Positions 23,631 through 64,000 of a stretch of DNA of 64,000 nt are shown in pieces. Made by a program: the position numbers and the translations under genes. Each line of letters begins with the position of its first letter. Positions within the stretch are counted from its first letter, which is position 1. The DNA is from Elephas maximus indicus (Eukaryota; Chordata; Mammalia; Proboscidea; Elephantidae): contig NC_064823.1 in assembly GCF_024166365.1 (NCBI RefSeq), forward strand, positions 2,536,924 to 2,600,923, in the 5' to 3' direction. A model generated the notes under the pieces. The model was given only the letters and a program-made list of their open reading frames with translations, made no database searches and was not told the origin of the DNA.

Positions 23631-24909
23631 GATGCAAAGTGACATCCACTTAGTCTCAGGATGCAGAAAGCTGCAAATGAATGTCATTCCAACTTAACAA
23701 TGAGAACACAGCCAGATAACCTAAAAAATTAATAATGTTTAAACTACCAGCATCAATTTAATGTGAAAGTGGTGCTGCTTCGGTGAAACTGCATTTTCAC
23801 TCCCAACATGAACAGACTGCTGACCGCCAGAGGTCAACACGCCTGCTCGGGAGCCCTTCTCCTGTCACTCCCAACATGAACAGACTGCTGACCGCCAGAG
23901 TTCAACACGCCTGTGTCGGGAGCCCTTCTCCTGTCACTCCCAACATGAACAGACTGCTGACCGCCAGAGGTCAACACGCCTGTGTCGGGAGCCCTTCTCC
24001 TTTCACTCCCAACATGAACAGACTGCTGACCGCCAGAGTTCAACACGCCTGTGTCGGGAGCCCTTCTCCTGTCACTCAAAACATGAACAGACTGCTGACC
24101 GCCACAGTTCAACACGCCTGTGTCGGGAGCCCTTCTCCTGTCACTCAAAACATGAACAGACTGCTGACCGCCAGAGGTCAACACGCCTGTGTCGGGAGCC
24201 GTTCTCCTGTCACTCCCAACATGAACAGACTGCTGACCGCCAGAGGTCAACACGCCTGTGTCGGGAGCCCTTCTCCTGTCACTCCCAACATGAACAGACT
24301 GCTGACCGCCAGAGGTCAACACGCCTGTGTCGGGAGCCCTACTCCTGTCACTCCCAACATGAACAGACTGCTGACCGCCAGAGTTCAACACGCCTGTGTC
24401 GGGAGCCCTTCTCCTGTCACTCCCAACATGAACAGACTGCTGACCGCCAGAGTTCAACACGCCTGTGTCGGGAGCCCTTCTCCTGTCACTCCCAACATGA
24501 ACAGACTGCTGACCGCCAGAGTTCAACACGCCTGTGTCGGGAGCCCTTCTCCTGTCACTCCCAACATGAACAGACTGCTGACCGCCAGAGGTCAACACGC
24601 CTGTGTCGGGAGCCCTTCTCCTGTCACTCCCAACATGAACAGACTGCTGACCGCCAGAGTTCAACATGCCTGTGTCGGGAGCCCTTCTCCTGTCACTCCC
24701 AACATGAACAGACTGCTGACCGCCAGAGTTCAACACGCCTGTGTCGGGAGCCCTTCTCCTGTCACTCCCAACATGAACAGACTGCTGACCGCCAGAGTTC
24801 AACACGCCTGTGTCGGGAGCCCTTCTCCTGTCACTCCCAACATGAACAGACTGCTGACCGCCAGAGTTCAACACGCCTGCTCGGGAGCCCTTCTCCTTTC
24901 ACTCACAAC

Positions 24910-27900
24910 ATGAACAGACTGCTGACCGCCAGAGTTCAACACGCCTGCGTCGGGAGCCCTTCTCCTGTCACTCACAACATGAACAGACTGCTGACCGCCA
25001 GAGTTCAACACGCCTGTGTCGGGAGCCCTTCTCCTGTCACTCCCAACATGAACAGACTGCTGACCGCCAGAGGTCAACACGCCTGTGTCGGGAGCCCTTC
25101 TCCTGTCACTCCCAACATGAACAGACTGCTGACCGCCAGAGGTCAACACGCCTGTGTCGGGAGCCCTACTCCTGTCACTCCCAACATGAACAGACTGCTG
25201 ACCGCCAGAGTTCAACACGCCTGTGTCGGGAGCCCTTCTCCTGTCACTCCCAACATGAACAGACTGCTGACCGCCAGAGTTCAACACGCCTGTGTCGGGA
25301 GCCCTTCTCCTGTCACTCCCAACATGAACTGACTGCTGACCGCCAGAGTTCAACACGCCTGTGTCGGGAGCCCTTCTCCTGTCACTCCCAACATGAACAG
25401 ACTGCTGACCGCCAGAGGTCAACACGCCTGTGTCGGGAGCCCTTCTCCTGTCACTCCCAACATGAACAGACTGCTGACCGCCAGAGTTCAACACGCCTGT
25501 GTCGGGAGCCCTTCTCCTGTCACTCCCAACATGAACAGACTGCTGACCGCCAGAGTTCAACACGCCTGTGTCGGGAGCCCTTCTCCTGTCACTCACAACA
25601 TGAACAGACTGCTGACCGCCAGAGTTCAACACGCCTGTGTCGGGAGCCCTTCTCCTGTCACTCCCAACATGAACAGACTGCTGACCGCCAGAGTTCAACA
25701 CGCCTGCTCGGGAGCCCTTCTCCTTTCACTCACAACATGAACAGACTGCTGACCGCCAGAGTTCAACACGCCTGCGTCGGGAGCCCTTCTCCTGTCACTC
25801 CCAACATGAACAGACTGCTGACCGCCAGAGTTCAACATGCCTGTGTCGGGAGCCCTTCTACTGTCACTCCCAACATGAACAGACTGCTGACCGCCAGAGT
25901 TCAACACGCCTCTGTCGGGAGCCCTTCTCCTGTCACTCCCAACATGAACAGACTGCTGACTGCCAGAGTTCAACACGCCTGTGTCGGGAACCCTTCTCCT
26001 GTCACTCCCAACATGAACAGACTGCTGACCGCCAGAGTTCAACACGCCTGTGTCGGGAGCCCTTCTCCTGTCACTCCCAACATGAACAGACTGCTGACCG
26101 CCAGAGGTCAACACGCCTGTGTCGGGAGCCCTTCTCCTGTCACTCCCAACATGAACAGACTGCTGACCGCCAGAGTTCAACACGCCTGCTCGGGAGCCCT
26201 TCTCCTTTCACTCACAACATGAACAGACTGCTGACCGCCAGAGTTCAACACGCCTCCGTCGGGAGCCCTTCTCCTGTCACTCCCAACATGAACAGACTGC
26301 TGACCGCCAGAGTTCAACACGCCTGTGTCGGGAGCCCTTCTCCTGTCACTCCCAACATGAACAGACTGCTGACTGCCAGAGGTCAACACGCCTGCGTCGG
26401 GAGCCCTTCTCCTGTCACTCCCAACATGAACAGACTGCTGACCGCCAGAGTTCAACACGCCTGCGTCGGGAGCCCTTCTCCTGTCACTCCCAACATGAAC
26501 AGACTGCTGACCGCCAGAGGTCAACACGCCTGCGTCGGGAGCCCTTCTCCTGTCACTCCCAACATGAACAGACTGCTGACCGCCAGAGTTCAACACGCCT
26601 GTGTCGGGAGCCCTTCTCCTGTCACTCCCAACATGAACAGACTGCTGACCGCCAGAGTTCAACATGCCTGTGTCGGGAGCCCTTCTCCTGTCACTCCCAA
26701 CATGAACAGACTGCTGACCGCCAGAGTTCAACACGCCTGTGTCGGGAGCCCTTCTCCTGTCACTCCCAACATGAACAGACTGCTGACTGCCAGAGGTCAA
26801 CACGCGTGCGTCGGGAGCCCTTCTCCTGTCACTCCCAACATGAACAGACTGCTGACCGCCAGAGTTCAACACGCCTGTGTCGGGAGCCCTTCTCCTGTCA
26901 CTCCCAACATGAACAGACTGCTGACCGCCAGAGGTCAACACGCCTGCGTCGGGAGCCCTTCTCCTGTCACTCCCAACATGAACAGACTGCTGACCGCCAG
27001 AGGTCAACACGCCTGTGTCGGGAGCCCTTCTCCTGTCACTCCGAACATGAACAGACTGCTGACCGCCAGAGGTCAACACGCCTGTGTCGGGAGCCCTTCT
27101 CCTGTCACTCCCAACATGAACAGACTGCTGACCGCCAGAGTTCAACACGCCTGTGTCGGGAGCCCTTCTCCTGTCACTCCCAACATGAACAGACTGCTGA
27201 CCGCCAGAAGTCAACACGCCTGTGTCGGGAGCCCTTCTCCTGTCACTCCCAACATGAACAGACTGCTGACCGCCAGAGTTCAACACGCCTGTGTCGGGAG
27301 CCCTTCTCCTGTCACGCCCAACATGAACAGACTGCTGACCGCCAGAGGTCAACACGCCTGTGTCGGGAGCCCTTCTCCTGTCACTCCCAACATGAACAGA
27401 CTGCTGACCGCCAGAGTTCAACATGCCTGTGTCGGGAGCCCTTCTCCTGTCACTCCCAACATGAACAGACTGCTGACCGCCAGAGTTCAACACGCCTGTG
27501 TCGGGAGCCCTTCTCCTGTCACTCACAACATGAACAGACTGCTGACCACCAGAGGTCAACACGCCTGTGTCGGGAGCCCTTCTCCTGTCACTCCCAACAT
27601 GAACAGACTGCTGACCGCCAGAGGTCAACACGCCTGTGTCGGGAGCCCTTCTCCTGTCACTCCCAACATGAACAGACTGCTGACCGCCAGAGTTCAACAT
27701 GCCTGTGTCGGGAGCCCTTCTCCTGTCACTCCCAACATGAACAGACTGCTGACCGCCAGAGTTCAACATGCCTGTGTCGGGAGCCCTTCTCCTGTCACTC
27801 CCAACATGAACAGACTGCTGACCGCCAGAGGTCAACACGCCTGCGTCGGGAGCCCTTCTCCTGTCACTCCCAACATGAACAGACTGCTGACCGCCAGAGT

Positions 27901-28493
27901 TCAACACGCCTGCTCGGGACCCCTTCTCCTGTCACTCCCAACATGAACAGACTGCTAACCGCCAGAGTTCAACATGCCTGTGTCGGGAGCCCTTCTCCTG
28001 TCACTCCCAACATGAACAGACTGCTGACCGCCAGAGTTCAACATGCCTGTGTCAGGAGCCCTTCTCCTGTCACTCCCAACATGAACAGACTGCTGACCGC
28101 CAGAGTTCAACACGCCTGTGTCGGGAGCCCTTCTCCTGTCACTCCCAACATGAACAGACTGCTGACCGCCAGAGGTCAACACGCCTGTGTCGGGAGCCCT
28201 TCTCCTGTCACTCCCAACATGAACAGACTGCTGACCGCCAGAGTTCAACATGCCTGTGTCGGGAGCCCTTCTCCTGTCACTCCCAACATGAACAGACTGC
28301 TGACCGCCAGAGTTCAACACGCCTGTGTCGGGAGCCCTTCTCCTGTCACTCCCAACATGAACAGACTGCTGACCACCAGAGTTCAACACGCCTGTGTCGG
28401 GAGCCCTTCTCCTGTCACTCCCAACATGAACAGACTGCTGACCGCCAGAGTTCAACACGCCTGCTCGGGAGCCCTTCTCCTTTCACTCACAAC
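24910..28493. repeat. Higher-order repeat of 52 units (3584 bp), first copy
   Basis: Single-base-deleted units divide this stretch into runs of 12, 7, 25 and 8 units. The 12, 7 and 25 run order recurs exactly 3584 bp later (52 x 69 minus 4). A rare variant, aactgactg, is at 25330 and again at 28914, also 3584 bp apart. Confidence 0.85.
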
Positions 28494-31400
28494 ATGAACA
28501 GACTGCTGACCGCCAGAGTTCAACACGCCTGCGTCGGGAGCCCTTCTCCTGTCACTCCCAACATGAACAGACTGCTGACCGCCAGAGTTCAACACGCCTG
28601 TGTCGGGAGCCCTTCTCCTGTCACTCCCAACATGAACAGACTGCTGACCGCCAGAGGTCAACACGCCTGTGTCGGGAGCCCTTCTCCTGTCACTCCCAAC
28701 ATGAACAGACTGCTGACCGCCAGAGGTCAACACGCCTGTGTCGGGAGCCCTACTCCTGTCACTCCCAACATGAACAGACTGCTGACCGCCAGAGTTCAAC
28801 ACGCCTGTGTCGGGAGCCCTTCTCCTGTCACTCCCAACATGAACAGACTGCTGACCGCCAGAGTTCAACACGCCTGTGTCGGGAGCCCTTCTCCTGTCAC
28901 TCCCAACATGAACTGACTGCTGACCGCCAGAGTTCAACACGCCTGTGTCGGGAGCCCTTCTCCTGTCACTCCCAACATGAACAGACTGCTGACCGCCAGA
29001 GGTCAACACGCCTGTGTCGGGAGCCCTTCTCCTGTCACTCCCAACATGAACAGACTGCTGACCGCCAGAGTTCAACACGCCTGTGTCGGGAGCCCTTCTC
29101 CTGTCACTCCCAACATGAACAGACTGCTGACCGCCAGAGTTCAACACGCCTGTGTCGGGAGCCCTTCTCCTGTCACTCACAACATGAACAGACTGCTGAC
29201 CGCCAGAGTTCAACACGCCTGTGTCGGGAGCCCTTCTCCTGTCACTCCCAACATGAACAGACTGCTGACCGCCAGAGTTCAACACGCCTGCTCGGGAGCC
29301 CTTCTCCTTTCACTCACAACATGAACAGACTGCTGACCGCCAGAGTTCAACACGCCTGCGTCGGGAGCCCTTCTCCTGTCACTCCCAACATGAACAGACT
29401 GCTGACCGCCAGAGTTCAACATGCCTGTGTCGGGAGCCCTTCTACTGTCACTCCCAACATGAACAGACTGCTGACCGCCAGAGTTCAACACGCCTGTGTC
29501 GGGAGCCCTTCTCCTGTCACTCCCAACATGAACAGACTGCTGACCGCCAGAGTTCAACACGCCTGTGTCGGGAACCCTTCTCCTGTCACTCCCAACATGA
29601 ACAGACTGCTGACCGCCAGAGTTCAACACGCCTGTGTCGGGAGCCCTTCTCCTGTCACTCCCAACATGAACAGACTGCTGACCGCCAGAGGTCAACACGC
29701 CTGTGTCGGGAGCCCTTCTCCTGTCACTCCCAACATGAACAGACTGCTGACCGCCAGAGTTCAACACGCCTGCTCGGGAGCCCTTCTCCTTTCACTCACA
29801 ACATGAACAGACTGCTGACCGCCAGAGTTCAACACGCCTCCGTCGGGAGCCCTTCTCCTGTCACTCCCAACATGAACAGACTGCTGACCGCCAGAGTTCA
29901 ACACGCCTGTGTCGGGAGCCCTTCTCCTGTCACTCCCAACATGAACAGACTGCTGACTGCCAGAGGTCAACACGCCTGCGTCGGGAGCCCTTCTCCTGTC
30001 ACTCCCAACATGAACAGACTACTGACCGCCAGAGTTCAACACGCCTGCGTCGGGAGCCCTTCTCCTGTCACTCCCAACATGAACAGACTGCTGACCGCCA
30101 GAGTTCAACACGCCTGTGTCGGGAGCCCTTCTCCTGTCACTCCCAACATGAACAGACTGCTGACCGCCAGAGTTCAACACGCCTGTGTCGGGAGCCCTTC
30201 TCCTGTCACTCCCAACATGAACAGACTGCTGACCGCCAGAGTTCAACACGCCTGTGTCGGGAGCCCTTCTCCTGTCACTCCCAACATGAACAGACTGCTG
30301 ACCGCCAGAGTTCAACACGCCTGTGTCGGGAGCCCTTCTCCTGTCACTCCCAACATGAACAGACTGCTGACTGCCAGAGGTCAACACGCGTGCGTCGGGA
30401 GCCCTTCTCCTGTCACTCCCAACATGAACAGACTGCTGACCGCCAGAGTTCAACACGCCTGTGTCGGGAGCCCTTCTCCTGTCACTCCCAACATGAACAG
30501 ACTGCTGACCGCCAGAGGTCAACACGCCTGCGTCGGGAGCCCTTCTCCTGTCACTCCCAACATGAACAGACTGCTGACCGCCAGAGGTCAACACGCCTGT
30601 GTCGGGAGCCCTTCTCCTGTCACTCCGAACATGAACAGACTGCTGACCGCCAGAGGTCAACACGCCTGTGTCGGGAGCCCTTCTCCTGTCACTCCCAACA
30701 TGAACAGACTGCTGACCGCCAGAGTTCAACACGCCTGTGTCGGGAGCCCTTCTCCTGTCACTCCCAACATGAACAGACTGCTGACCGCCAGAAGTCAACA
30801 CGCCTGTGTCGGGAGCCCTTCTCCTGTCACTCCCAACATGAACAGACTGCTGACCGCCAGAGTTCAACACGCCTGTGTCGGGAGCCCTTCTCCTGTCACG
30901 CCCAACATGAACAGACTGCTGACCGCCAGAGGTCAACACGCCTGTGTCGGGAGCCCTTCTCCTGTCACTCCCAACATGAACAGACTGCTGACCGCCAGAG
31001 TTCAACATGCCTGTGTCGGGAGCCCTTCTCCTGTCACTCCCAACATGAACAGACTGCTGACCGCCAGAGTTCAACACGCCTGTGTCGGGAGCCCTTCTCC
31101 TGTCACTCACAACATGAACAGACTGCTGACCACCAGAGGTCAACACGCCTGTGTCGGGAGCCCTTCTCCTGTCACTCCCAACATGAACAGACTGCTGACC
31201 GCCAGAGGTCAACACGCCTGTGTCGGGAGCCCTTCTCCTGTCACTCCCAACATGAACAGACTGCTGACCGCCAGAGTTCAACATGCCTGTGTCGGGAGCC
31301 CTTCTCCTGTCACTCCCAACATGAACAGACTGCTGACCGCCAGAGTTCAACATGCCTGTGTCGGGAGCCCTTCTCCTGTCACTCCCAACATGAACAGACT

Positions 31401-34400
31401 GCTGACCGCCAGAGGTCAACACGCCTGCGTCGGGAGCCCTTCTCCTGTCACTCCCAACATGAACAGACTGCTGACCGCCAGAGTTCAACACGCCTGCTCG
31501 GGACCCCTTCTCCTGTCACTCCCAACATGAACAGACTGCTAACCGCCAGAGTTCAACATACCTGTGTCGGGAGCCCTTCTCCTGTCACTCCCAACATGAA
31601 CAGACTGCTGACCGCCAGAGTTCAACATGCCTGTGTCAGGAGCCCTTCTCCTGTCACTCCCAACATGAACAGACTGCTGACCGCCAGAGTTCAACATGCC
31701 TGTGTCGGGAGCCCTTCTCCTGTCACTCCCAACATGAACAGACTGCTGACCGCCAGAGATCAACACGCCTGTGTCGGGAGCCCTTCTCCTGTCACTCCCA
31801 ACATGAACAGACTGCTGACCGCCAGAGGTCAACACGCCTGTGTCGAGAGCCCTTCTCCTGTCACTCACAACATGAACAGACTGCTTACCGCCAGAGTTCA
31901 ACACGCCTGTGTCGGGAGCCCTTCTCCTGTCACTCCCAACATGAACAGACTGCTGACCGCCAGAGTTCAACACGCCTGTGTCGGGAGCCCTTCTCCTGTC
32001 ACTCACAACATGAACAGACTGCTGACCGCCAGAGATCAACACGCCTGTGTCGGGAGCCCTTCTCCTGTCACTCCCAACATGAACAGACTGCTGACCGCCA
32101 GAGGTCAACACGCCTGTGTCGGGAGCCCTTCTCCTGTCACTCCCAACATGAACAGACTGCTGACCGCCAGAGGTCAACACGCCTGTGTCGGGAGCCCTTC
32201 TCCTGTCACTCCCAACATGAACAGACTGCTGACCGCCAGAGGTCAACACGCCTGTGTCGGGAGCCCTTCTCCTGTCACTCCCAACATGAACAGACTGCTG
32301 ACCGCCAGAGTTCAACACGCCTGTGTCGGGAGCCCTTCTCCTGTCACTCCCAACATGAACAGACTGCTGACCGCCAGAGTTCAACACGCCCGCTTGGGAG
32401 CCCTTCTCCTGTCACTCCCAACATGAACAGACTGCTGACCGCCAGAGTTCAACATGCCTGTGTCGGGAGCCCTTCTCCTGTCACTCCCAACATGAACAGA
32501 CTGCTGACCGCCAGAGTTCAACACGCCTGTGTCGGGAGCCCTTCTCCTGTCACTCCCAACATGAACAGACTGCTGACCGCCAGAGGTCAACACGCCTGCG
32601 TCGGGAGCCCTTCTCCTGTCACTCCCAACATGAACAGACTGCTGACCGCCAGAGTTCAACACGCCTGTGTCGGGAGCCCTTCTCCTGTCACTCCCAACAT
32701 GAACAGACTGCTGACCGCCAGAGGTCAACACGCCTGCGTCGGGAGCCCTTCTCCTGTCACTCCCAACATGAACAGACTGCTGACCGCCAGAGGTCAACAC
32801 GCCTGTGTCGGGAGCCCTTCTCCTGTCACTCCCAACATGAACAGACTGCTGACCGCCAGAGTTCAACACGCCTGTGTCGGGAGCCCTTCTCCTGTCACGC
32901 CCAACATGAACAGACTGCTGACCGCCAGAGGTCAACACGCCTGTGTCGGGAGCCCTTCTCCTGTCACTCCCAACATGAACAGACTGCTGACCGCCAGAGT
33001 TCAACATGCCTGTGTCGGGAGCCCTTCTCCTGTCACTCCCAACATGAACAGACTGCTGACCGCCAGAGTTCAACACGCCTGTGTCGGGAGCCCTTCTCCT
33101 GTCACTCACAACATGAACAGACTGCTGACCACCAGAGGTCAACACGCCTGTGTCGGGAGCCCTTCTCCTGTCACTCCCAACATGAACAGACTGCTGACCG
33201 CCAGAGGTCAACACGCCTGTGTCGGGAGCCCTTCTCCTGTCACTCCCAACATGAACAGACTGCTGACCGCCAGAGTTCAACATGCCTGTGTCGGGAGCCC
33301 TTCTCCTGTCACTCCCAACATGAACAGACTGCTGACCGCCAGAGTTCAACATGCCTGTGTCGGGAGCCCTTCTCCTGTCACTCCCAACATGAACAGACTG
33401 CTGACCGCCAGAGGTCAACACGCCTGCGTCGGGAGCCCTTCTCCTGTCACTCCCAACATGAACAGACTGCTGACCGCCAGAGTTCAACACGCCTGCTCGG
33501 GACCCCTTCTCCTGTCACTCCCAACATGAACAGACTGCTGACCGCCAGAGTTCAACATGCCTGTGTCGGGAGCCCTTCTCCTGTCACTCCCAACATGAAC
33601 AGACTGCTGACCGCCAGAGTTCAACATGCCTGTGTCAGGAGCCCTTCTCCTGTCACTCCCAACATGAACAGACTGCTGACCGCCAGAGTTCAACATGCCT
33701 GTGTCGGGAGCCCTTCTCCTGTCACTCCCAACATGAACAGACTGCTGACCGCCAGAGTTCAACACGCCTGTGTCGGGAGCCCTTCTCCTGTCACTCCCAA
33801 CATGAACAGACTGCTGACCGCCAGAGGTCAACAAGCCTGTGTCGGGAGCCCTTCTCCTGTCACTCCCAACATGAACAGACTGCTGACCGCCAGAGTTCAA
33901 CACGCCTGTGTCGGGAGCCCTTCTCCTGTCACTCCCAACATGAACAGACTGCTGACCGCCAGAGTTCAACACGCCTGTGTCGGGAGCCCTTCTCCTGTCA
34001 CTCCCAACATGAACAGACTGCTGACCGCCAGAGGTCAACACGCCTGTGTCGGGAGCCCTTCTCCTGTCACTCCCAACATGAACAGACTGCTGACCGCCAG
34101 AGGTCAACACGCCTGTGTCGGGAGCCCTTCTCCTGTCACTCCCAACATGAACAGACTGCTGACCGCCAGAGGTCAACACGCCTGTGTCGGGAGCCCTTCT
34201 CCTGTCACTCCCAACATGAACAGACTGCTGACCGCCAGAGGTCTACACGCCTGTGTCGGGAGCCCTTCTCCTGTCACTCCCAACATGAACAGACTGCTGA
34301 CCGCCAGAGTTCAACACGCCTGTGTCGGGAGCCCTTCTCCTGTCACTCCCAACATGAACAGACTGCTGACCGCCAGAGTTCAACACGCCCGCTCGGGAGC

Positions 34401-35524
34401 CCTTCTCCTGTCACTCCCAACATGAACAGACTGCTGACCGCCAGAGTTCAACATGCCTGTGTCGGGAGCCCTTCTCCTGTCACTCCCAACATGAACAGAC
34501 TGCTGACCGCCAGAGTTCAACATGCCTGTGTCAGGAGCCCTTCTCCTGTCACTCCCAACATGAACAGACTGCTGACCGCCAGAGTTCAACACGCCTGTGT
34601 CGGGAGCCCTTCTCCTGTCACTCCCAACATGAACAGACTGCTGACCGCCAGAGGTCAACACGCCTGTGTCGGGAGCCCTTCTCCTGTCACTCCCAACATG
34701 AACAGACTGCTGACCGCCAGAGTTCAACATGCCTGTGTCGGGAGCCCTTCTCCTGTCACTCCCAACATGAACAGACTGCTGACCGCCAGAGGTCAACACG
34801 CCTGTGTCGGGAGCCCTTCTCCTGTCACTCCCAACATGAACAGACTGCTGACCGCCAGAGTTCAACACGCCTGTGTCGGGAGCCCTTCTCCTGTCACTCC
34901 CAACATGAACAGACTGCTGACCGCCAGAGGTCAACACGCCTGTGTCGGGAGCCCTACTCCTGTCACTCCCAACATGAACAGACTGCTGACCGCCAGAGTT
35001 CAACACGCCTGTGTCGGGAGCCCTTCTCCTGTCACTCCCAACATGAACAGACTGCTGACCGCCAGAGTTCAACACGCCTGTGTCGGGAGCCCTTCTCCTG
35101 TCACTCCCAACATGAACAGACTGCTGACCGCCAGAGTTCAACACGCCTGTGTCGGGAGCCCTTCTCCTGTCACTCCCAACATGAACAGACTGCTGACCGC
35201 CAGAGGTCAACACGCCTGTGTCGGGAGCCCTTCTCCTGTCACTCCCAACATGAACAGACTGCTGACCGCCAGAGTTCAACACGCCTGTGTCGGGAGCCCT
35301 TCTCCTGTCACTCCCAACATGAACAGACTGCTGACCGCCAGAGTTCAACACGCCTGTGTCGGGAGCCCTTCTCCTGTCACTCACAACATGAACAGACTGC
35401 TGACCGCCAGAGTTCAACACGCCTGTGTCGGGAGCCCTTCTCCTGTCACTCCCAACATGAACAGACTGCTGACCGCCAGAGTTCAACACGCCTGCTCGGG
35501 AGCCCTTCTCCTTTCACTCACAAC
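26219..35524. repeat. Higher-order repeat of 135 units (9306 bp), copy 1
   Basis: The run order of units between deleted units (25, 8, 12, 7, 25, 13, 16, 13, 16) repeats at an exact offset of 9306 bp, which equals 135 x 69 minus 9. The start is placed by convention at a deleted unit; the true recombination border may differ by a few units. Confidence 0.9.
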
Positions 35525-51119: not shown

Positions 51120-52913
51120 ACCGCCAGAGTTGAACATGCCTGTGTCGGGAGCCCTTCTACTGTCACTCACAACATGAACAGACTGCTGACCGCCAGAGTT
51201 CAACATGCCTGCGTCAGGAGCCCTTCTCCTGTCACTCCCAACATGAACAGACTGCTGACCGCCAGAGTTCAACACGCCTGTGTCGGTAGCCCTTCTCCTG
51301 TCACTCCCAACATGAAGAGACTGCTAACCGCCAGAGTTCAACATGCCTGCGTCGGGAGCCCTTCTCCTGTCACTCCCAACATGAACAGACTGCTGACCGC
51401 CAGATTTCAACATGCCTGGGTCGGGAGCTCTTCTCCTGTCACTCCCAACATGAACAGACTGCTGACCGCCAGAGTTCAACATGCCTGCGTCGGGAGCCCT
51501 TCTCCTGTCACTCCCAACATGAACAGACTGCTGACCGCCAGAGTTCAACATGCCTGCGTCGGGAGCCCTTCTCCTGTCACTCACAACATGAACAGACTGC
51601 TGACCGCCAGAGTTCAAAATGCCTGTGTTGGGAGCCCTTCTCCTTTCACTCACAACATGAACAGACTGCTGACCGCCAGAGTTCAACATGCCTGCGTCGG
51701 GAGCCCTTCTCCTGTCACTCCCAACATGAACAGACTGCTGACCGCCAGAGTTCAACATGCCTGCGTCGGGAGCCCTTCTCCTGTTACTCCCAACATGAAC
51801 AGACTGCTGACCGCCAGAGTTCAACATGCCTGTGTCGGGAGCCCTTCTCCTTTCACTCCCAACATGAACAGACTGCTGACCGCCAGAGTTCAACACGCCT
51901 GCGTTGGGAGCCCTTCTCCTGTCACTCCCAACATGAACAGACTGCTGACCGCCAGAGTTCAACATGCCTGTGTCGGGAGCCCTTCTCCTGTCACTCCCAA
52001 CATGAACAGACTGCTGACCGCCAGAGTTGAACATGCCTGTGTCGGGAGCCCTTCTACTGTCACTCACAACATGAACAGACTGCTGACCGCCAGAGTTCAA
52101 CATGCCTGCGTCAGGAGCCCTTCTCCTGTCACTCCCAACATGAACAGACTGCTGACCGCCAGAGTTCAACACGCCTGTGTCGGGAGCCCTTCTCCTGTCA
52201 CTCCCAACATGAAGAGACTGCTAACCGCCAGAGTTCAACATGCCTGCGTCGGGAGCCCTTCTCCTGTCACTCCCAACATGAACAGACTGCTGACCGCCAG
52301 ATTTCAACATGCCTGGGTCGGGAGCTCTTCTCCTGTCACTCCCAACATGAACAGACTGCTGACCGCCAGAGTTCAACATGCCTGCGTCGGGAGCCCTTCT
52401 CCTGTCACTCCCAACATGAACAGACTGCTGACCGCCAGAGTTCAACATGCCTGCGTCGGGAGCCCTTCTCCTGTCACTCACAACATGAACAGACTGCTGA
52501 CCGCCAGAGTTCAAAATGCCTGTGTTGGGAGCCCTTCTCCTTTCACTCACAACATGAACAGACTGCTGACCGCCAGAGTTCAACATGCCTGCGTCGGGAG
52601 CCCTTCTCCTGTCACTCCCAACATGAACAGACTGCTGACCGCCAGAGTTCAACATGCCTGCGTCGGGAGCCCTTCTCCTGTTACTCCCAACATGAACAGA
52701 CTGCTGACCGCCAGAGTTCAACATGCCTGTGTCGGGAGCCCTTCTCCTTTCACTCCCAACATGAACAGACTGCTGACCGCCAGAGTTCAACACGCCTGCG
52801 TTGGGAGCCCTTCTCCTGTCACTCCCAACATGAACAGACTGCTGACCGCCAGAGTTCAACATGCCTGTGTCGGGAGCCCTTCTACTGTCACTCCCAACAT
52901 GAACAGACTGCTG
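51120..52913. repeat. Tandem 13-unit duplication (2 x 897 bp)
   Basis: The rare variants agttgaacatg, gaagagactgctaacc, agatttcaacatg, cctgggtcgggagctc and gttcaaaatgcc occur twice in the same order at 897 bp spacing (13 x 69). Confidence 0.88.
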
Positions 52914-55900
52914 ACCGCCAGAGTTCAACACGCCTGTGTCAGGAGCCCTTCTCCTGTCACTCCCAACATGAACAGACTGCTGATCGCCAGAGTTCAACAC
53001 GCCTGTGTCGGGAGCCCTTCTCCTGTCACTCCCAACATGAACAGACTGCTGACCGCCAGAGTTCAACACGCCTGTGTCGGGAGCCCTTCTCCTGTCACTC
53101 CCAACATGAACAGACTGCTGACCGCCAGAGGTCAACACGCCTGTGTCGGGAGCCCTTCTCCTGTCACTCCCAACATGAACAGACTGCTGACCGCCAGAGT
53201 TCAACACGCCTGCTTCGGAGCCCTTCTCCTTTCACTCACAACATGAACAGACTGCTGACCGCCAGAGTTCAACACGCCTGCGTCGGGAGCCCTTCTCCTG
53301 TCACTCCCAACATGAACAGACTGCTGACCGCCAGAGTTCAACACGCCTGTGTCGGGAGCCCTTCTCCTGTCACTCCCAACATGAACAGACTGCTGACTGC
53401 CAGAGGTCAACACGCCTGCGTCGGGAGCCCTTCTCCTGTCACTCCCAACATGAACAGACTGCTGACCGCCAGAGGTCAACACGCCTGTGTCGGGAGCCCT
53501 TCTCCTGTCACTCCCAACATGAACAGACTGCTGACAGCCAGAGTTCAACATGCCTGTGTCAGGAGCCCTTCTCCTGTCACTCCCAACATGAACAGACTGC
53601 TGACCGCCAGAGTTCAACACGCCTGTGTCGGGAGCCCTTCTCCTGTCACTCCCAACATGAACAGACTGCTGACTGCCAGAGGTCAACACGCCTGCGTCGG
53701 GAGCCCTTCTCCTGTCACTCCCAACATGAACAGACTGCTGACCGCCAGAGTTCAACATGCCTGTGTCGGGAGCCCTTCTCCTGTCACTCCCAACATGAAC
53801 AGACTGCTGACCGCCAGAGTTCAACACGCCTGTGTCGGGAGCCCTTCTCCTGTCACTCCCAACATGAACAGACTGCTGACCGCCAGAGGTCAACACGCCT
53901 GTGTCGGGAGCCCTTCTCCTGTCACTCACAACATGAACAGACTGCTGACCGCCAGAGTTCAACACGCCTATGTCGGGAGCCCTTCTCCTGTCACTCCCAA
54001 CATGAACAGACTGCTGACCGCCAGAGGTCAACACGCCTGTGTCGGGAGCCCTTCTCCTGTCACTCCCAACATGAACAGACTGCTGACCGCCAGAGGTCAA
54101 CACGCCTGTGTCGGGAGCCCTTCTCCTGTCACTCCCAACATGAACAGACTGCTGACCGCCAGAGGTCAACACGCCTGTGTCGGGAGCCCTTCTCCTGTCA
54201 CTCCCAACATGAACAGACTGCTGACCGCCAGAGTTCAACACGCCGTGTCGGGAGCCCTTCTCCTGTCACTCCCAACATGAACAGACTGCTGACCGCCAGA
54301 GTTCAACACGCCCGCTCGGGAGCCCTTCTCCTGTCACTCCCAACATGAACAGAGTGCTGACCGCCAGAGTTCAACATGCCTGTGTCGGGAGCCCTTCTCC
54401 TGTCACTCCCAACATGAACAGACTGCTGACCGCCAGAGTTCAACAAGCCTGTGTCAGGAGCCCTTCTCCTGTCACTCCCAACATGAACAGACTGCTGACC
54501 GCCAGAGGTCAACACGCCTGTGTCGGGAGCCCTTCTCCTGTCACTCCCAACATGAACAGACTGCTGACCGCCAGAGTTCAACACGCCTGTGTCGGGAGCC
54601 CTTCTCCTGTCACTCCCAACATGAACAGACTGCTGACCGCCAGAGGTCAACACGCCTGTGTCGGGAGCCCTTCTCCTGTCACTCCCAACATGAACAGACT
54701 GCTGACCGCCAGAGTTCAACATGCCTGTGTCGGGAGCCCTTCTCCTGTCACTCCCAACATGAACAGACTGCTGACCGCCAGAGGTCAACATGCCTGTGTC
54801 GGGAGCCCTTCTCCTGTCACTCCCAACATGAACAGACTGCTGACCGCCAGAGTTGAACATGCCTGTGTCGGGAGCCCTTCTACTGTCACTCACAACATGA
54901 ACAGACTGCTGACCGCCAGAGTTCAACATGCCTGCGTCAGGAGCCCTTCTCCTGTCACTCCCAACATGAACAGACTGCTGACCGCCAGAGTTCAACACGC
55001 CTGTGTCGGGAGCCCTTCTCCTGTCACTCCCAACATGAAGAGACTGCTAACCGCCAGAGTTCAACATGCCTGCGTCGGGAGCCCTTCTCCTGTCACTCCC
55101 AACATGAACAGACTGCTGACCGCCAGAGTTCAACATGCCTGGGTCGGGAGCCCTTCTCCTGTCACTCCCAACATGAACAGACTGCTGACCGCCAGAGTTC
55201 AACATGCCTGCGTCGGGAGCCCTTCTCCTGTCACTCCCAACATGAACAGACTGCTGACCGCCAGAGTTCAACATGCCTGCGTCGGGAGCCCTTCTCCTGT
55301 CACTCCCAACATGAACAGACTGCTGACCGCCAGAGTTCAACACGCCTGTGTCGGGAGCCCTTCTCCTGTCACTCCCAACATGAACAGACTGCTGACTGCC
55401 AGAGGTCAACACGCCTGCGTCGGGAGCCCTTCTCCTGTCACTCCCAACATGAACAGACTGCTGACCGCCAGAGGTCAACACGCCTGTGTCGGGAGCCCTT
55501 CTCCTGTCACTCCCAACATGAACAGACTGCTGACAGCCAGAGTTCAACATGCCTGTGTCAGGAGCCCTTCTCCTGTCACTCCCAACATGAACAGACTGCT
55601 GACCGCCAGAGTTCAACACGCCTGTGTCGGGAGCCCTTCTCCTGTCACTCCCAACATGAACAGACTGCTGACTGCCAGAGGTCAACACGCCTGCGTCGGG
55701 AGCCCTTCTCCTGTCACTCCCAACATAAACAGACTGCTGACCGCCAGAGTTCAACATGCCTGTGTCGGGAGCCCTTCTCCTGTCACTCCCAACATGAACA
55801 GACTGCTGACCGCCAGAGTTCAACACGCCTGTGTCGGGAGCCCTTCTCCTGTCACTCCCAACATGAACAGACTGCTGACCGCCAGAGGTCAACACGCCTG

Positions 55901-56482
55901 TGTCGGGAGCCCTTCTCCTGTCACTCACAACATGAACAGACTGCTGACCGCCAGAGTTGAACATGCCTGTGTCGGGAGCCCTTCTACTGTCACTCAGAAC
56001 ATGAACAGACTGCTGACCGCCAGAGTTCAACGTGCCTGCGTCAGGAGCCCTTCTCCTGTCACTCCCAACATGAACAGACTGCTGACCGCCAGAGTTCAAC
56101 ACGCCTGTGTCGGGAGCCCTTCTCCTGTCACTCCCAACATGAACAGACTGCTGACCGCCAGAGGTCAACACGCCTGTGTCGGGAGCCCTTCTCCTGTCAC
56201 TCCCAACATGAACAGACTGCTGACCGCCAGAGTTCAACACGCCTGTGTCGGGAGCCCTTCTCCTGTCACTCCCAACATGAACAGACTGCTGACCGCCAGA
56301 GTTCAACACGCCTGTGTCGGGAGCCCTTCTCCTGTCACTCACAACATGAACAGACTGCTGACCGCCAGAGTTCAACACGCCTGTGTCGGGAGCCCTTCTC
56401 CTGTCACTCCCAACATGAACAGACTGCTGACCGCCAGAGTTCAACACGCCTGCTCGGGAGCCCTTCTCCTTTCACTCACAAC

Positions 56483-59400
56483 ATGAACAGACTGCTGACC
56501 GCCAGAGTTCAACACGCCTGCGTCGGGAGCCCTTCTCCTGTCACTCCCAACATGAACAGACTGCTGACCGCCAGAGTTCAACATGCCTGTGTCGGGAGCC
56601 CTTCTACTGTCACTCCCAACATGAACAGACTGCTGACCGCCAGAGTTCAACACGCCTGTGTCGGGAGCCCTTCTCCTGTCACTCCCAACATGAACAGACT
56701 GCTGACCGCCAGAGTTCAACACGCCTGTGTCGGGAACCCTTCTCCTGTCACTCCCAACATGAACAGACTGCTGACCGCCAGAGTTCAACACGCCTGTGTC
56801 GGGAGCCCTTCTCCTGTCACTCCCAACATGAACACACTGCTGACCGCCAGAGGTCAACACGCCTGTGTCGGGAGCCCTTCTCCTGTCACTCCCAACATGA
56901 ACAGACTGCTGACCGCCAGAGTTCAACACGCCTCCGTCGGGAGCCCTTCTCCTGTCACTCCCAACATGAACAGACTGCTGACCGCCAGAGTTCAACACGC
57001 CTGTGTCGGGAGCCCTTCTCCTGTCACTCCCAACATGAACAGACTGCTGACTGCCAGAGGTCAACACGCCTGCGTCGGGAGCCCTTCTCCTGTCACTCCC
57101 AACATGAACAGACTGCTGACCGCCAGAGTTCAACATGCCTGCGTCGGGAGCCCTTCTCCTGTCACTCCCAAAATGAACAGACTGCTGACCGCCAGAGGTC
57201 AACACGCCTGCGTCGGGAGCCCTTCTCCTGTCACTCCCAACATGAACAGACTGCTGACCGCCAGAGTTCAACACGCCTGTGTCGGGAGCCCTTCTCCTGT
57301 CACTCCCAACATGAACAGACTGCTGACCGCCAGAGTTCAACATGCCTGTGTCGGGAGCCCTTCTCCTGTCACTCCCAACATGAACAGACTGCTGACTGCC
57401 AGAGGTCAACACGCGTGCGTCGGGAGCCCTTCTCCTGTCACTCCCAACATGAACAGACTGCTGACCGCCAGAGTTCAACACGCCTGTGTCGGGAGCCCTT
57501 CTCCTGTCATTCCCAACATGAACAGACTGCTGACCGCCAGAGGTCAACACGCCTGCGTCGGGAGCCCTTCTCCTGTCACTCCCAACATGAACAGACTGCT
57601 GACCGCCAGAGTTCAACACGCCTGTGTCGGGAGCCCTTCTCCTGTCACTCCCAACATGAACAGACTGCTGACCGCCAGAGGTCAACACGCCTGTGTCGGG
57701 AGCCCTTCTCCTGTCACTCCCAACATGAACAGACTGCTGACCGCCAGAGTTCAACACGCCTGTGTCGGGAGCCCTTCTCCTGTCACTCCCAACATGAACA
57801 GACTGCTGACCGCCAGAAGTCAACACGCCTGTGTCGGGAGCCCTTCTCCTGTCACTCCCAACATGAACAGACTGCTGACCGCCAGAGTTCAACACGCCTG
57901 TGTCGGGAGCCCTTCTCCTGTCACGCCCAACATGAACAGACTGCTGACCGCCAGAGGTCAACACGCCTGTGTCGGGAGCCCTTCTCCTGTCACTCCCAAC
58001 ATGAACAGACTGCTGACCGCCAGAGTTCAACATGCCTGTGTCGGGAGCCCTTCTCCTGTCACTCCCAACATGAACAGACTGCTGACCGCCAGAGTTCAAC
58101 ACGCCTGTGTCGGGAGCCCTTCTCCTGTCACTCACAACATGAACAGACTGCTGACCACCAGAGTTCAACATGCCTGTGTCGGGAGCCCTTCTCCTGTCAC
58201 TCCCAACATGAACAGACTGCTGACCGCCAGAGGTCAACACGCCTGTGTCGGGAGCCCTTCTCCTGTCACTCCCAACATGAACAGACTGCTGACCGCCAGA
58301 GTTCAACATGCCTGTGTCGGGAGCCCTTCTCCTGTCACTCCCAACATGAACAGACTGCTGACCGCCAGAGTTCAACACGCCTGTGTCGGGAGCCCTTCTC
58401 CTGTCACTCCCAACATGAACAGACTGCTGACCGCCAGAGGTCAACACGCCTGCGTCGGGAGCCCTTCTCCTGTCACTCCCAACATGAACAGACTGCTGAC
58501 CGCCAGAGTTCAACACGCCTGCTCGGGACCCCTTCTCCTGTCACTCCCAACATGAACAGACTGCTAACCGCCAGAGTTCAACATGCCTGTGTCGGGAGCC
58601 CTTCTCCTGTCACTCCCAACATGAACAGACTGCTGACCGCCAGAGTTCAACATGCCTGTGTCAGGAGCCCTTCTCCTGTCACTCCCAACATGAACAGACT
58701 GCTGACCGCCAGAGTTCAACATGCCTGTGTCGGGAGCCCTTCTCCTGTCACTCCCAACATGAACAGACTGCTGACCGCCAGAGATCAACACGCCTGTGTC
58801 GGGAGCCCTTCTCCTGTCACTCCCAACATGAACAGACTGCTGACCGCCAGAGGTCAACACGCCTGTGTCGAGAGCCCTTCTCCTGTCACTCACAACATGA
58901 ACAGACTGCTTACCGCCAGAGTTCAACACGCCTGTGTCGGGAGCCCTTCTCCTGTCACTCCCAACATGAACAGACTGCTGACCGCCAGAGTTCAACACGC
59001 CTGTGTCGGGAGCCCTTCTCCTGTCACTCACAACATGAACAGACTGCTGACCGCCAGAGATCAACACGCCTGTGTCGGGAGCCCTTCTCCTGTCACTCCC
59101 AACATGAACAGACTGCTGACCGCCAGAGGTCAACACGCCTGTGTCGGGAGCCCTTCTCCTGTCACTCCCAACATGAACAGACTGCTGACCGCCAGAGGTC
59201 AACACGCCTGTGTCGGGAGCCCTTCTCCTGTCACTCCCAACATGAACAGACTGCTGACCGCCAGAGGTCAACACGCCTGTGTCGGGAGCCCTTCTCCTGT
59301 CACTCCCAACATGAACAGACTGCTGACCGCCAGAGTTCAACACGCCTGTGTCGGGAGCCCTTCTCCTGTCACTCCCAACATGAACAGACTGCTGACCGCC

Positions 59401-62400
59401 AGAGTTCAACACGCCCGCTCGGGAGCCCTTCTCCTGTCACTCCCAACATGAACAGACTGCTGACCGCCAGAGTTCAACATGCCTGTGTCGGGAGCCCTTC
59501 TCCTGTCACTCCCAACATGAACAGACTGCTGACCGCCAGAGTTCAACACGCCTGTGTCGGGAGCCCTTCTCCTGTCACTCCCAACATGAACAGACTGCTG
59601 ACCGCCAGAGGTCAACACGCCTGCGTCGGGAGCCCTTCTCCTGTCACTCCCAACATGAACAGACTGCTGACCGCCAGAGTTCAACACGCCTGTGTCGGGA
59701 GCCCTTCTCCTGTCACTCCCAACATGAACAGACTGCTGACCGCCAGAGGTCAACACGCCTGCGTCGGGAGCCCTTCTCCTGTCACTCCCAACATGAACAG
59801 ACTGCTGACCGCCAGAGTTCAACACGCCTGTGTCGGGAGCCCTTCTCCTGTCACTCCCAACATGAACAGACTGCTGACCGCCAGAGGTCAACACGCCTGT
59901 GTCGGGAGCCCTTCTCCTGTCACTCCCAACATGAACAGACTGCTGACCGCCAGAGTTCAACACGCCTGTGTCGGGAGCCCTTTTCCTGTCACTCCCAACA
60001 TGAATAGACTGCTGACCGCCAGAGGTCAACACGCCTGTGTCGGGAGCCCTTCTCCTGTCACTCCCAGCATGAACAGACTGCTGACCGCCAGAGTTCAACA
60101 CGCCTGTGTCGGGAGCCCTTCTCCTGTCACGCCCAACATGAACAGACTGCTGACCGCCAGAGGTCAACACGCCTGTGTCGGGAGCCCTTCTCCTGTCACT
60201 CCCAACATGAACAGACTGCTGACCGCCAGAGTTCAACACGCCTGTGTCGGGAGCCCTTCTCCTGTCACTCCCAACATGAACAGACTGCTGACCGCCAGAG
60301 TTCAACACGCCTGTGTCGGGAGCCCTTCTCCTGTCACTCACAACATGAACAGACTGCTGACCACCAGAGGTCAACACGCCTGTGTCGGGAGCCCTTCTCC
60401 TGTCACTCCCAACATGAACAGACTGCTGACCGCCAGAGGTCAACACGCCTGTGTCGGGAGCCCTTCTCCTGTCACTCCCAACATGAACAGACTGCTGACC
60501 GCCAGAGTTCAACATGCCTGTGTCGGGAGCCCTTCTCCTGTCACTCCCAACATGAACAGACTGCTGACCGCCAGCGTTCAACATGCCTGTGTCGGGAGCC
60601 CTTCTCCTGTCACTCCCAACATGAACAGACTGCTGACCGCCAGAGGTCAACACGCCTGCGTCGGGAGCCCTTCTCCTGTCACTCCCAACATGAACAGACT
60701 GCTGACCGCCAGAGTTCAACACGCCTGCTCGGGACCCCTTCTCCTGTCACTCCCAACATGAACAGACTGCTGACCGCCAGAGTTCAACATGCCTGTGTCG
60801 GGAGCCCTTCTCCTGTCACTCCCAACATGAACAGACTGCTGACCGCCAGAGTTCAACATGCCTGTGTCAGGAGCCCTTCTCCTGTCACTCCCAACATGAA
60901 CAGACTGCTGACCGCCAGAGTTCAACATGCCTGTGTCGGGAGCCCTTCTCCTGTCACTCCCAACATGAACAGACTGCTGACCGCCAGAGTTCAACACGCC
61001 TGTGTCGGGAGCCCTTCTCCTGTCACTCCCAACATGAACAGACTGCTGACCGCCAGAGGTCAACACGCCTGTGTCGGGAGCCCTTCTCCTGTCACTCCCA
61101 ACATGAACAGACTGCTGACCGCCTGAGGTCAACACGCCTGTGTCGGGAGCCCTTCTCCTGTCACTCCCAACATGAACAGACTGCTGACCGCCAGAGGTCT
61201 ACACGCCTGTGTCGGGAGCCCTTCTCCTGTCACTCCCAACATGAACAGACTGCTGACCGCCAGAGTTCAACATGCCTGTGTCGGGAGCCCTTCTCCTGTC
61301 ACTCCCAACATGAACAGACTGCTGACCGCCAGAGTTCAACATGCCTGTGTCGGGAGCCCTTCTCCTGTCACTCCCAACATGAACAGACTGCTGACCGCCA
61401 GAGTTCAACATGCCTGTGTCGGGAGCCCTTCTCCTGTCACTCCCAACATGAACAGACTGCTGACCGCCAGAGTTCAACATGCCTGCGTCGGGAGCCCTTC
61501 TCCTGTCACTCCCAACATGAACAGACTGCTGACCGCCAGAGTTCAACACGCCTGCTCGGGAGCCCTTCTCCCTTCACTCACAACATGAACAGACTGCTGA
61601 CCGCCAGAGTTCAACATGCCTGTGTCGGGAGCCCTTCTCCTGTCACTCCCAACATGAACAGACTGTTGACCGCCAGAGTTCAACATGCCTGTGTCGGGAG
61701 CCCTTCTCCTTTCACTCCCAACATGCACAGACTGCTGACCGCCAGAGTTCAACATGCCTGTGTCGGGAGCCCTTCTCCTGTCACTCCCAACATGAACAGA
61801 CTGCTGACCGCCAGAGTTGAACATGCCTGTGTCGGGAGCCCTTCTCCTGTCACTCACAACATGAACAGACTGCTGACCGCCAGAGTTCAACATGCCTGCG
61901 TCAGGAGCCCTTCTCCTGTCACTCCCAACATGAACAGACTGCTGACCGCCAGAGTTCAACACGCCTGTGTCGGGAGCCCTTCTCCTGTCACTCCCAACAT
62001 GAAGAGACTGCTAACCGCCAGAGTTCAACATGCCTGCGTCGGAAGCCCTTCTCCTGTCACTCCCAACATGAACAGACTGCTGACCGCCAGAGGTCAACAT
62101 GCCTGTGTCGGGAGCCCTTCTCCTGTCACTCCCAACATGAACAGACTGCTGACCGCCAGAGGTCAACACGCCTGTGTCGGGAGCCCTTCTCCTGTCACTC
62201 CCAACATGAACAGACCGCTGACCGCCAGAGTTCAACATGCCTGTGTCGGGAGCCCTTCTCCTGTCACTCCCAACATGAACAGACTGCTGACCGCCAGAGT
62301 TCAACATGCCTGTGTCGGGAGCCCTTCTCCTGTCACTCCCAACATGAACAGACTGCTGACCGCCAGAGTTCAACATGCCTGTGTCGGGAGCCCTTCTCCT

Positions 62401-64000
62401 GTCACTCCCAACAGGAACAGACTGTTGACCGCCAGAGTTCAACATGCCTGCGTCGGGAGCCCTTCTCCTGTCACTCCCAACATGAACAGACTGCTGACCG
62501 CCAGAGTTCAACACGCCTGCTCGGGAGCCCTTCTCCCTTCACTCACAACATGAACAGACTGCTGACCGCCAGAGTTCAACATGCCTGTGTCGGGAGCCCT
62601 TCTCCTGTCACTCCCAACATGAACAGACTGTTGACCGCCAGAGTTCAACATGCCTGTGTCGGGAGCCCTTCTCCTTTCACTCCCAACATGCACAGACTAC
62701 TGACCGCCAGAGTTCAACATGCCTGTGTCGGGAGCCCTTCTCCTGTCACTCCCAACATGAACAGACTGCTGACCGCCAGAGTTGAACATGCCTGTGTCGG
62801 GAGCCCTTCTACTGTCACTCACAACATGAACAGACTGCTGACCGCCAGAGTTCAACATGCCTGCGTCAGGAGCCCTTCTCCTGTCACTCCCAACATGAAC
62901 AGACTGCTGACCGCCAGAGTTCAACACGCCTGTGTCGGTAGCCCTTCTCCTGTCACTCCCAACATGAAGAGACTGCTAACCGCCAGAGTTCAACATGCCT
63001 GCGTCGGGAGCCCTTCTCCTGTCACTCCCAACATGAACAGACTGCTGACCGCCAGATTTCAACATGCCTGGGTCGGGAGCTCTTCTCCTGTCACTCCCAA
63101 CATGAACAGACTGCTGACCGCCAGAGTTCAACATGCCTGCGTCGGGAGCCCTTCTCCTGTCACTCCCAACATGAACAGACTGCTGACCGCCAGAGTTCAA
63201 CATGCCTGCGTCGGGAGCCCTTCTCCTGTCACTCACAACATGAACAGACTGCTGACCGCCAGAGTTCAAAATGCCTGTGTTGGGAGCCCTTCTCCTTTCA
63301 CTCACAACATGAACAGACTGCTGACCGCCAGAGTTCAACATGCCTGCGTCGGGAGCCCTTCTCCTGTCACTCCCAACATGAACAGACTGCTGACCGCCAG
63401 AGTTCAACATGCCTGCGTCGGGAGCCCTTCTCCTGTTACTCCCAACATGAACAGACTGCTGACCGCCAGAGTTCAACATGCCTGTGTCGGGAGCCCTTCT
63501 CCTTTCACTCCCAACATGAACAGACTGCTGACCGCCAGAGTTCAACACGCCTGCGTTGGGAGCCCTTCTCCTGTCACTCCCAACATGAACAGACTGCTGA
63601 CCGCCAGAGTTCAACATGCCTGTGTCGGGAGCCCTTCTCCTGTCACTCCCAACATGAACAGACTGCTGACCGCCAGAGTTGAACATGCCTGTGTCGGGAG
63701 CCCTTCTACTGTCACTCACAACATGAACAGACTGCTGACCGCCAGAGTTCAACATGCCTGCGTCAGGAGCCCTTCTCCTGTCACTCCCAACATGAACAGA
63801 CTGCTGACCGCCAGAGTTCAACACGCCTGTGTCGGGAGCCCTTCTCCTGTCACTCCCAACATGAAGAGACTGCTAACCGCCAGAGTTCAACATGCCTGCG
63901 TCGGGAGCCCTTCTCCTGTCACTCCCAACATGAACAGACTGCTGACCGCCAGATTTCAACATGCCTGGGTCGGGAGCTCTTCTCCTGTCACTCCCAACAT
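56483..64000. repeat. Higher-order repeat of 169 units, copy 2, cut by window end
   Basis: Runs of 30, 13, 19, 12 and 14 units repeat in the same order as from 44831. A rare in-unit change, gcctgaggtc, lies at 49472 and 61124, exactly 11652 bp apart. About 7.5 kb of this copy is in view. Confidence 0.9.

What the first reader, a model, noticed from the sequence alone, without database searches (positions are those of the whole stretch)
23795..64000. Unnamed 69-bp megasatellite beside SCOC
More than 40 kb of uninterrupted 69-bp tandem units in euchromatic-looking gene territory is unusual. No SINE, LINE or other insertion is visible in the whole array although the preceding 24 kb is full of them. 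That suggests rapid turnover and recent expansion. I do not know a named satellite with this unit.
Basis: partly seen in the sequence, partly recalled or inferred. Interest (0 to 1): 0.85.

Follow-up and report, generated by a model that had tools for sequence, protein, structure and literature searches.

The report
Giant single-locus elephant minisatellite beside SCOC
Next to the SCOC gene in what looks like an elephant genome, a 69-letter DNA motif is repeated about 2,600 times in a row and was found nowhere else in that genome; it is an unusually large member of an ordinary class (minisatellites) that keeps a readable record of how such arrays grow.

Summary
The array runs past the window edge: 180.9 kb, 2,624 units, no N, ending at C7:2741634. 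Of 2,623 unit spacings 2,622 are 66-69 bp, so nothing is inserted. AfroSINE seeds form 70 clusters in 133 kb of flank, 0 in the array.

It is single-locus. Two unit probes with up to 3 mismatches match 2,624 and 2,475 times genome-wide, exactly the counts inside the array, all on one strand.

The genome is inferred to be an elephant's, from a TP53-retrogene-like cluster. The array lies between divergent SCOC and (inferred) MAML3.

It grew by nested tandem duplication of blocks: 82% of units lie in blocks of 20 or more under 0.5% diverged from another block; the largest, 11,652 bp, has zero differences. Variant alleles form an end-to-end gradient. The far edge keeps one 79-bp spacing, probably the founder.

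No convincing coding, RNA or centromeric signal was found. Best reading: a giant minisatellite ('midisatellite'), not a megasatellite, probably without sequence-specific function. Reads and other species could not be examined.

The parts
23797..64000 (+). 69-bp tandem array, part inside the window (583 units); continues without a break to C7:2741634 (window coordinate 204711 if extended), 2,624 units in all
   Evidence: TRF; unit parse; single-locus test
24494..31661 (+). tandem duplication of a 52-unit block (3.6 kb), 9 differences
26148..44896 (+). tandem duplication of a 135-unit block (9,306 bp), 4 differences over 137 compared units
44392..64000 (+). tandem duplication of a 169-unit block (11,652 bp) with 0 differences; the second copy runs past the window to extended coordinate 67795
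23596..23796 (.). left flank, single-copy in the genome apart from one weak 67-bp match; the word ATTTTCACTC at its boundary with the array recurs inside the single 79-bp spacing at the right edge of the array
20001..21000 (.). CpG island (GC up to 0.80, CpG o/e up to 0.79), probable SCOC promoter, 2.8 kb from the array edge
   Evidence: promoter role inferred
12413..12535 (-). SCOC coiled-coil exon (Pfam DUF2205, PF10224)
   Evidence: E = 2.4e-14

Best explanation
The array is a giant single-locus minisatellite (a 'midisatellite' by size) in an elephant genome, in the interval between divergent SCOC and MAML3. Inferred course: (1) a segment of about 79 bp was duplicated once; (2) one spacer lost 10 bp, CACTGATTTT, between two TTTCACT words, giving the 69-bp unit; (3) repeated unequal exchange or template-switch duplication of blocks of roughly 40-170 units, mostly to the left of the founding pair, carried it to 2,624 units, and this went on until very recently. 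Shown: one locus and one orientation at the resolution of the probes, nested block duplications of graded divergence, an allele gradient, the lone 79-bp spacing at the right edge. Inferred: the order of steps, the exchange mechanism, the recency in years, and that the sequence has no specific function of its own.
For: Single locus and orientation: 2,624 of 2,624 and 2,475 of 2,475 genome-wide probe matches are accounted for by this array, 0 on the reverse strand. Block duplications: abutting pairs of 169 units with 0 differences, 135 with 4, 65 with 0, 44 with 0, 42 with 1, 82 with 6, 52 with 9; the longest identical run in 5 order-shuffles is 4-5 units against 170 observed. Blocks of 20 or more units under 0.5% diverged cover 82.1% of units. 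Gradient: six alleles tested, rank correlation over 15 blocks 0.87-0.91 in size, 0 or 1 of 5,000 block permutations as extreme. Founder trace: the only 79-bp spacing is the last of the 2,623, between the two rightmost units, and its junction sequence matches the left flank. At probe resolution the unit is not a dispersed repeat and the left flank is nearly unique. No Rfam match. Not coding: 152 of 2,623 spacings shift the reading frame (151 of 68 bp and the 79-bp one), all six frames carry 1,568 to 2,059 stops, and changing variants in the three open frames are near expectation (144 observed against 155 expected, 163/148, 142/149).
Against: Everything rests on one assembly; no reads, second haplotype or second species was available. 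The gradient is not monotonic: for the two strongest alleles blocks 3-5 dip and block 6 returns to values like blocks 1-2; the six alleles were chosen, and neighbouring blocks share duplicated stretches, so the permutation counts flatter it. Recent duplications occur along most of the array, not only at the left end, so polarity is shown in allele content, not in recency. From 62 to 265 bp past the right edge lies a dispersed repeat, so an old mobile-element origin of the unit, too diverged for the probes, is not excluded. In one open frame silent variants are somewhat above expectation (67 against 56), in another below (39 against 51); neither was tested formally.
Confidence: 0.82

Rival explanations
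1. The length, or the near-identical blocks, are an assembly artefact: the assembler duplicated or mis-joined segments of a shorter array.
For: One tandem duplication of 11,652 bp is exact and two others (65 and 44 units) are exact too; no reads could be examined.
Against: No N in the array. The duplicate blocks listed range from 0 to 0.4% divergence without a break, more like duplications of different age than assembler copies (inference). No 15-kb word recurs and only 2.1% of positions start a recurring 10-kb word, so reads of HiFi or nanopore length could place the copies. Both edges join non-array sequence.
Confidence: 0.1
2. The array acts on SCOC (or MAML3) as a CpG-dense repeat domain, like the macrosatellites D4Z4 or DXZ4: it would carry methylation or heterochromatin and its length would tune the promoter 2.8 kb away.
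For: The array holds 6,898 CpGs, o/e 0.50 against 0.26 and 0.25 in the flanks, and ends 2.8 kb from the CpG island.
Against: No functional data. CpG transitions among variant units are only 1.5 times as frequent per base as changes elsewhere, a weak trace of germline methylation at best. By eye, against a CTCF consensus recalled from memory and in no call, the unit did not fit. High CpG may simply reflect youth and a GC-rich seed.
Confidence: 0.06
3. It is a chromosome-end or centromeric satellite that spilled along the chromosome: C7 begins with another satellite-like repeat 2.56 Mb away.
For: C7 bases 1-1500 repeat with a period of about 851 bp (less than two copies seen) and hold a 17-mer 3 mismatches from the L. 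africana CENP-B box quoted in PMC8421680.
Against: The probes for the 69-bp unit match nowhere outside the array in 64 contigs, and the unit lacks a CENP-B box: the best match to the nine-base domain has 3 mismatches.
Confidence: 0.01
4. It encodes a repetitive protein: 69 bp is 23 codons and three of six frames are open in the consensus.
For: The longest open stretch is 2,915 codons; in one frame silent variants slightly exceed expectation, 67 against 56.
Against: 152 of 2,623 spacings shift the frame, all six frames have 1,568 to 2,059 stops over the array, the second open frame shows the opposite trend (39 silent against 51 expected), and no Pfam match reaches its cut-off (best 16.5 bits against 27).
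Confidence: 0.01

Closest known systems
Midisatellite D1Z2 (human 1p36; recalled, about 40-bp unit and hundreds of kb; only reference-list titles seen)
   Same: Minisatellite-sized unit, one locus, array of the order of 100 kb or more
   Different: Different unit and species; D1Z2 is near a chromosome tip (recalled), this lies between SCOC and MAML3, 2.56 Mb from a contig end
Human minisatellite VNTRs: a 30-mer with 100-3000 copies, a 25-mer in ABCA7 with over 200, a 69-mer in WDR7 (PMC10502081, passages)
   Same: Units of tens of bases with internal variants at one locus; copy numbers up to 3,000 (about 90 kb) are quoted, so the copy number here is not unheard of
   Different: The array here is about twice that longest quoted length; the WDR7 unit has the same length but the sequences were not compared
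Macrosatellites DXZ4 and D4Z4 (PMC3218863, passages)
   Same: Uninterrupted and restricted to one or two places in the genome; DXZ4 is GC-rich
   Different: Units of 2 to >12 kb, with known expression and, for DXZ4 and contracted D4Z4, CTCF binding; here 69 bp, with block duplications but no fixed long unit, and nothing known of expression
TMAsat, manatee centromeric satellite (PMC8421680, abstract and passages)
   Same: Tandem repeat described in an afrotherian
   Different: [quoted passage not shown] this one is a single locus

Membership tests
Minisatellite / VNTR | Head-to-tail units of roughly 10-100 bp | tested here: met
   69-bp unit, 2,469 of 2,623 spacings exactly 69
Minisatellite / VNTR | Single locus | tested here: met
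   Probe counts genome-wide equal those in the array
Minisatellite / VNTR | Copy number varies between individuals | not testable with these tools
   One assembly only
Midisatellite (minisatellite unit, array of 100 kb or more; definition recalled) | Array of the order of 100 kb or more at one locus | tested here: met
   180.9 kb
Macrosatellite / megasatellite | Unit of 2 to >12 kb (PMC3218863) | tested here: not met
   Unit 69 bp; longer-range duplications have no constant period
Macrosatellite / megasatellite | Restricted to one or two locations (PMC3218863) | tested here: met
   One location at probe resolution
Centromeric satellite DNA | Present on many chromosomes | tested here: not met
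   One place among 64 contigs at probe resolution
Centromeric satellite DNA | CENP-B box | tested here: not met
   No exact nine-base domain in two joined units; best match 3 mismatches
Protein-coding repeat | Open frame kept across units | tested here: not met
   152 of 2,623 spacings shift the frame; 1,568 to 2,059 stops in each of six frames
Array derived from a mobile element | Unit or flank belongs to a dispersed repeat | tested here: inconclusive
   Unit and left flank not dispersed; a dispersed repeat begins about 62 bp past the right edge

The most novel reading that the evidence does not exclude
The SCOC-MAML3 array is an elephant-lineage, hypervariable regulatory domain: a one-locus, CpG-dense array that grows directionally towards the SCOC promoter from a fixed founder edge and whose length sets the chromatin state of that promoter, a minisatellite-unit counterpart of D4Z4.
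Probability: 0.05. Interest if true: 0.75.

Novelty: new member of a known kind. Interest (0 to 1): 0.4.

Why it matters
Long minisatellite arrays are often missing or collapsed in assemblies (general knowledge). Here one of 181 kb is assembled through, found at one place only, free of insertions, and keeps what looks like its founder edge and a readable series of block duplications of graded age. It is therefore a good natural record for testing how such arrays start, grow and acquire polarity, and a candidate hypervariable marker for elephants. It also shows that a single locus can reach satellite size without spreading to other chromosomes.

Tried and rejected
Coding array: rejected by frame shifts, stops in all six frames and no consistent excess of silent variants. 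Structured RNA: no Rfam match up to E = 1 in 23700-25700. Single-strand folding as DNA: two unit forms and the reverse complement of one fold no better than shuffles (z -0.68, -0.39, 0.06). Centromeric satellite: single locus and no CENP-B box. Fixed higher-order repeat like alpha satellite: the best lag, 169 units, gives only 13.1% identical units against 4.8% by chance over the whole array, so the long-range order is local duplication. Strong germline CpG decay: only 1.5-fold, on 230 of 267 variant types that could be placed as single steps. Relatives in the viral and prokaryote collections: 0 exact matches to a 28-mer, as expected for an animal sequence. First genome search with a 138-bp query scored only 40 of 242 candidates and was replaced by the probe counts. 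Literature: six searches aimed at the array and four at comparators. Searches returned nothing;'s 80 papers 20 and's 227 papers 12 were listed; I judged by titles and abstract starts only. The VNTR paper PMC12776774 does not contain the words elephant or Loxodonta.
Full report
Observation. Tandem Repeats Finder gives one array at 23797-64000, period 69, 583 copies, 96% matches. The window is G000:C7:2536924-2600923, in a genome of 3.40 Gb in 64 contigs. After the 250 kb to the right was fetched the array proved to end at extended coordinate 204711, that is C7:2741634: 180.9 kb, 2,624.1 copies, no N. A parse on a 24-base anchor gave 2,624 anchors and 2,623 spacings: 2,469 of 69 bp, 151 of 68, 2 of 66, 1 of 79. 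Among the 2,623 delimited units there are 268 distinct sequences, the commonest present 349 times. Nothing is inserted anywhere; AfroSINE seeds, by contrast, form 15 clusters in 23.8 kb on the left, 55 in 109 kb on the right and 0 in the array. The flank density would predict about 95 in an array of this length.

Single locus. A 28-base probe from the first part of the unit, with up to 3 mismatches, matches 2,624 times forward and 0 times reverse in the whole genome; the reversed control probe matches 0 times. The array itself holds exactly 2,624 such matches. A 31-base probe from the second part gives 2,475 genome-wide and 2,475 in the array, 0 reverse. The place lists of those searches are cut, but the counts are stated to be whole. 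So at this level of divergence there is no copy elsewhere and no inverted copy. Older, more diverged relics are not excluded.

Where it is. The Pfam family DUF2205 (SCOC) matches at C7:2549336-2549458 minus, window 12413-12535. The CpG island at 20001-21000 is probably its promoter, so the array begins 2.8 kb upstream of it. A MamL-1 exon is at C7:2985838 plus, 244 kb beyond the far end; I take it for MAML3 because it neighbours SCOC (human gene order recalled, not tested). The two genes point away from each other and the array is between them. I also recall, untested, that human SCOC has long isoforms with remote first exons; whether the array is inside an intron of such a form here is unknown. 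C7 begins not with telomere repeats but with sequence that repeats at about 851 bp, of which less than two copies were seen (61% ungapped identity at that lag). It is 2.56 Mb from the array, so 'gene territory' is right but a satellite-like contig end is not far.

Which animal. The P53 family search lists 45 matches; 33 of the 45 rows are on contig C36 between 24.5 and 38.4 Mb, in what I count by hand as 27 separate places. In several of them two parts of the domain lie within half a kilobase, as in processed copies. About 20 TP53 retrogenes are reported for African and Asian elephants (abstract starts of PMC9935553 and PMC5061548; passage of PMC9108310, 19 in the African elephant). With the AfroSINE-like flanks (name recalled), this makes the genome an elephant's; African or Asian was not resolved.

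How it grew. Identical runs of units were sought at every lag. The longest are 170 units at lag 169 (11,652 bp, exact over 11,752 bp, extended coordinates 44392-67795), 90 at lag 267, 69 at lag 194, 66 at lag 65, 64 at lag 184 and 63 at lag 135; in five order-shuffles the longest run was 4 or 5. Allowing mismatches, 106 paired segments were found, of which 45 were printed; among the abutting pairs printed the differences are 0 (169, 65 and 44 units), 1 (42), 4 (135 and 38), 6 (82), 8 (55) and 9 (52). Of all units 82.1% are in blocks of 20 or more units that differ by less than 0.5% from another block; the largest stretches outside are units 869-1005 and the last 180, 2443-2623. Over the whole array the best lag has only 13.1% identical units, chance 4.8%, so there is no fixed higher-order unit, only many local block duplications of different divergence. 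This is what unequal exchange or template-switch duplication would leave. No differences in 11,652 bp puts the 95% upper limit of divergence at 0.026%; with a mammalian mutation rate of about 0.5-1 per billion sites a year (recalled) that means roughly a quarter of a million years or less, unless conversion erased differences.

Polarity and founder. Six unit alleles change in frequency along the array; over 15 blocks of 170 units (the last 73 units left out) the rank correlations are -0.885, -0.904, 0.898, 0.874, 0.906 and 0.873, reached by 0 of 5,000 block permutations for five and 1 of 5,000 for the sixth. They were picked from the eleven columns with minor alleles above 2% after one search had shown their trend, the other five were not tested, and blocks share duplicated stretches, so these figures are flattered. 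The allele AGAGGTCA, in about a third of units near SCOC, is at 0.00 in the last three blocks. The curve is not smooth: blocks 3-5 dip and block 6 returns to values like blocks 1-2. The last of the 2,623 spacings, alone in the array, is 79 bp; it holds ten extra bases between two TTTCACT words, and its junction (ATTTTCACTC) matches the sequence where the left flank enters the array. The simplest reading is that the right edge keeps the founding 79-bp pair, that a 10-bp deletion between the TTTCACT words made the 69-bp unit, and that later growth took place to its left. The left flank is unique apart from one weak 67-bp match. From 62 to 265 bp past the right edge there is a dispersed repeat at about 75% identity (40 of 1,631 candidates scored), a caution against calling the seed wholly unique.

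What it is not. Three of six frames are open in the consensus because 69 bp is 23 codons, and the longest open stretch is 2,915 codons, but 152 of 2,623 spacings shift the frame (151 of 68 bp and the 79-bp one), each of the six frames carries 1,568 to 2,059 stops, and changing and silent variants are near expectation: 144 and 67 (expected 155 and 56), 163 and 39 (148 and 51), 142 and 44 (149 and 43), on 214 single-step variants, without a formal test. Pfam gives nothing above cut-off, Rfam nothing up to E = 1, folding nothing beyond shuffles. It has no CENP-B box. It is CpG-dense, 6,898 CpGs, observed over expected 0.50 against 0.26 and 0.25 in the flanks, but CpG transitions are only 1.5 times as frequent per base as changes elsewhere (24 on 5.3 bases a unit against 192 on 63.7), so strong germline methylation is not shown.

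Artefact. I could not see reads. In favour of the assembly: no gaps, a graded series of block divergences, non-array sequence at both edges, and no 15-kb word that recurs; 2.1% of positions start a recurring 10-kb word and 9.2% a recurring 5-kb word. Against: three exact tandem duplications. The exact length should be held loosely.

Name and novelty. Macrosatellites have 2 to >12 kb units (PMC3218863, passages), so 'megasatellite' is the wrong word. By unit it is a minisatellite and by length a midisatellite, the name given to human D1Z2 (recalled; only reference-list titles were seen). Human minisatellites with up to 3,000 copies of a 30-mer, about 90 kb, are quoted in PMC10502081 (passages), so this array is very large but not without company. 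Six searches of the paper library aimed at it showed no description of it in the titles and abstract starts listed; Dfam and Repbase were not available. It is a new, very large and unusually legible member of a known kind. Nothing here shows a function, and I think it most likely that it has none of its own beyond its bulk.

Noticed in passing
G000:C36:24528448-38338674: P53-family search lists 33 of 45 rows on one contig over 14 Mb, by hand count 27 separate places, several with the look of processed copies; more than the 19-20 TP53 retrogenes quoted for elephants.
   Followed up: partly
L038 (G000:C7:1-1500): Contig C7 begins with sequence that repeats at about 851 bp and carries a 17-mer three mismatches from the published L. 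africana CENP-B box; the reported elephant centromere monomer is 936 bp (PMC4053949, passage).
   Followed up: partly
window 20324-20456 and 21068-21170: G-rich (GGCCGGG-type) and C-rich (CCACCCC-type) short tandem repeats inside and just beyond the CpG island at SCOC.
   Followed up: no
G000:C37:137569559-137569720 and C17:86259980-86260162: Two further SCOC-family matches that are longer than the exon match at the gene, one open and one with four stops: probably processed copies.
   Followed up: no
L024:773-976: Dispersed repeat (40 scored of 1,631 candidates, about 75% identity) that begins about 62 bp past the right edge of the array.
   Followed up: partly
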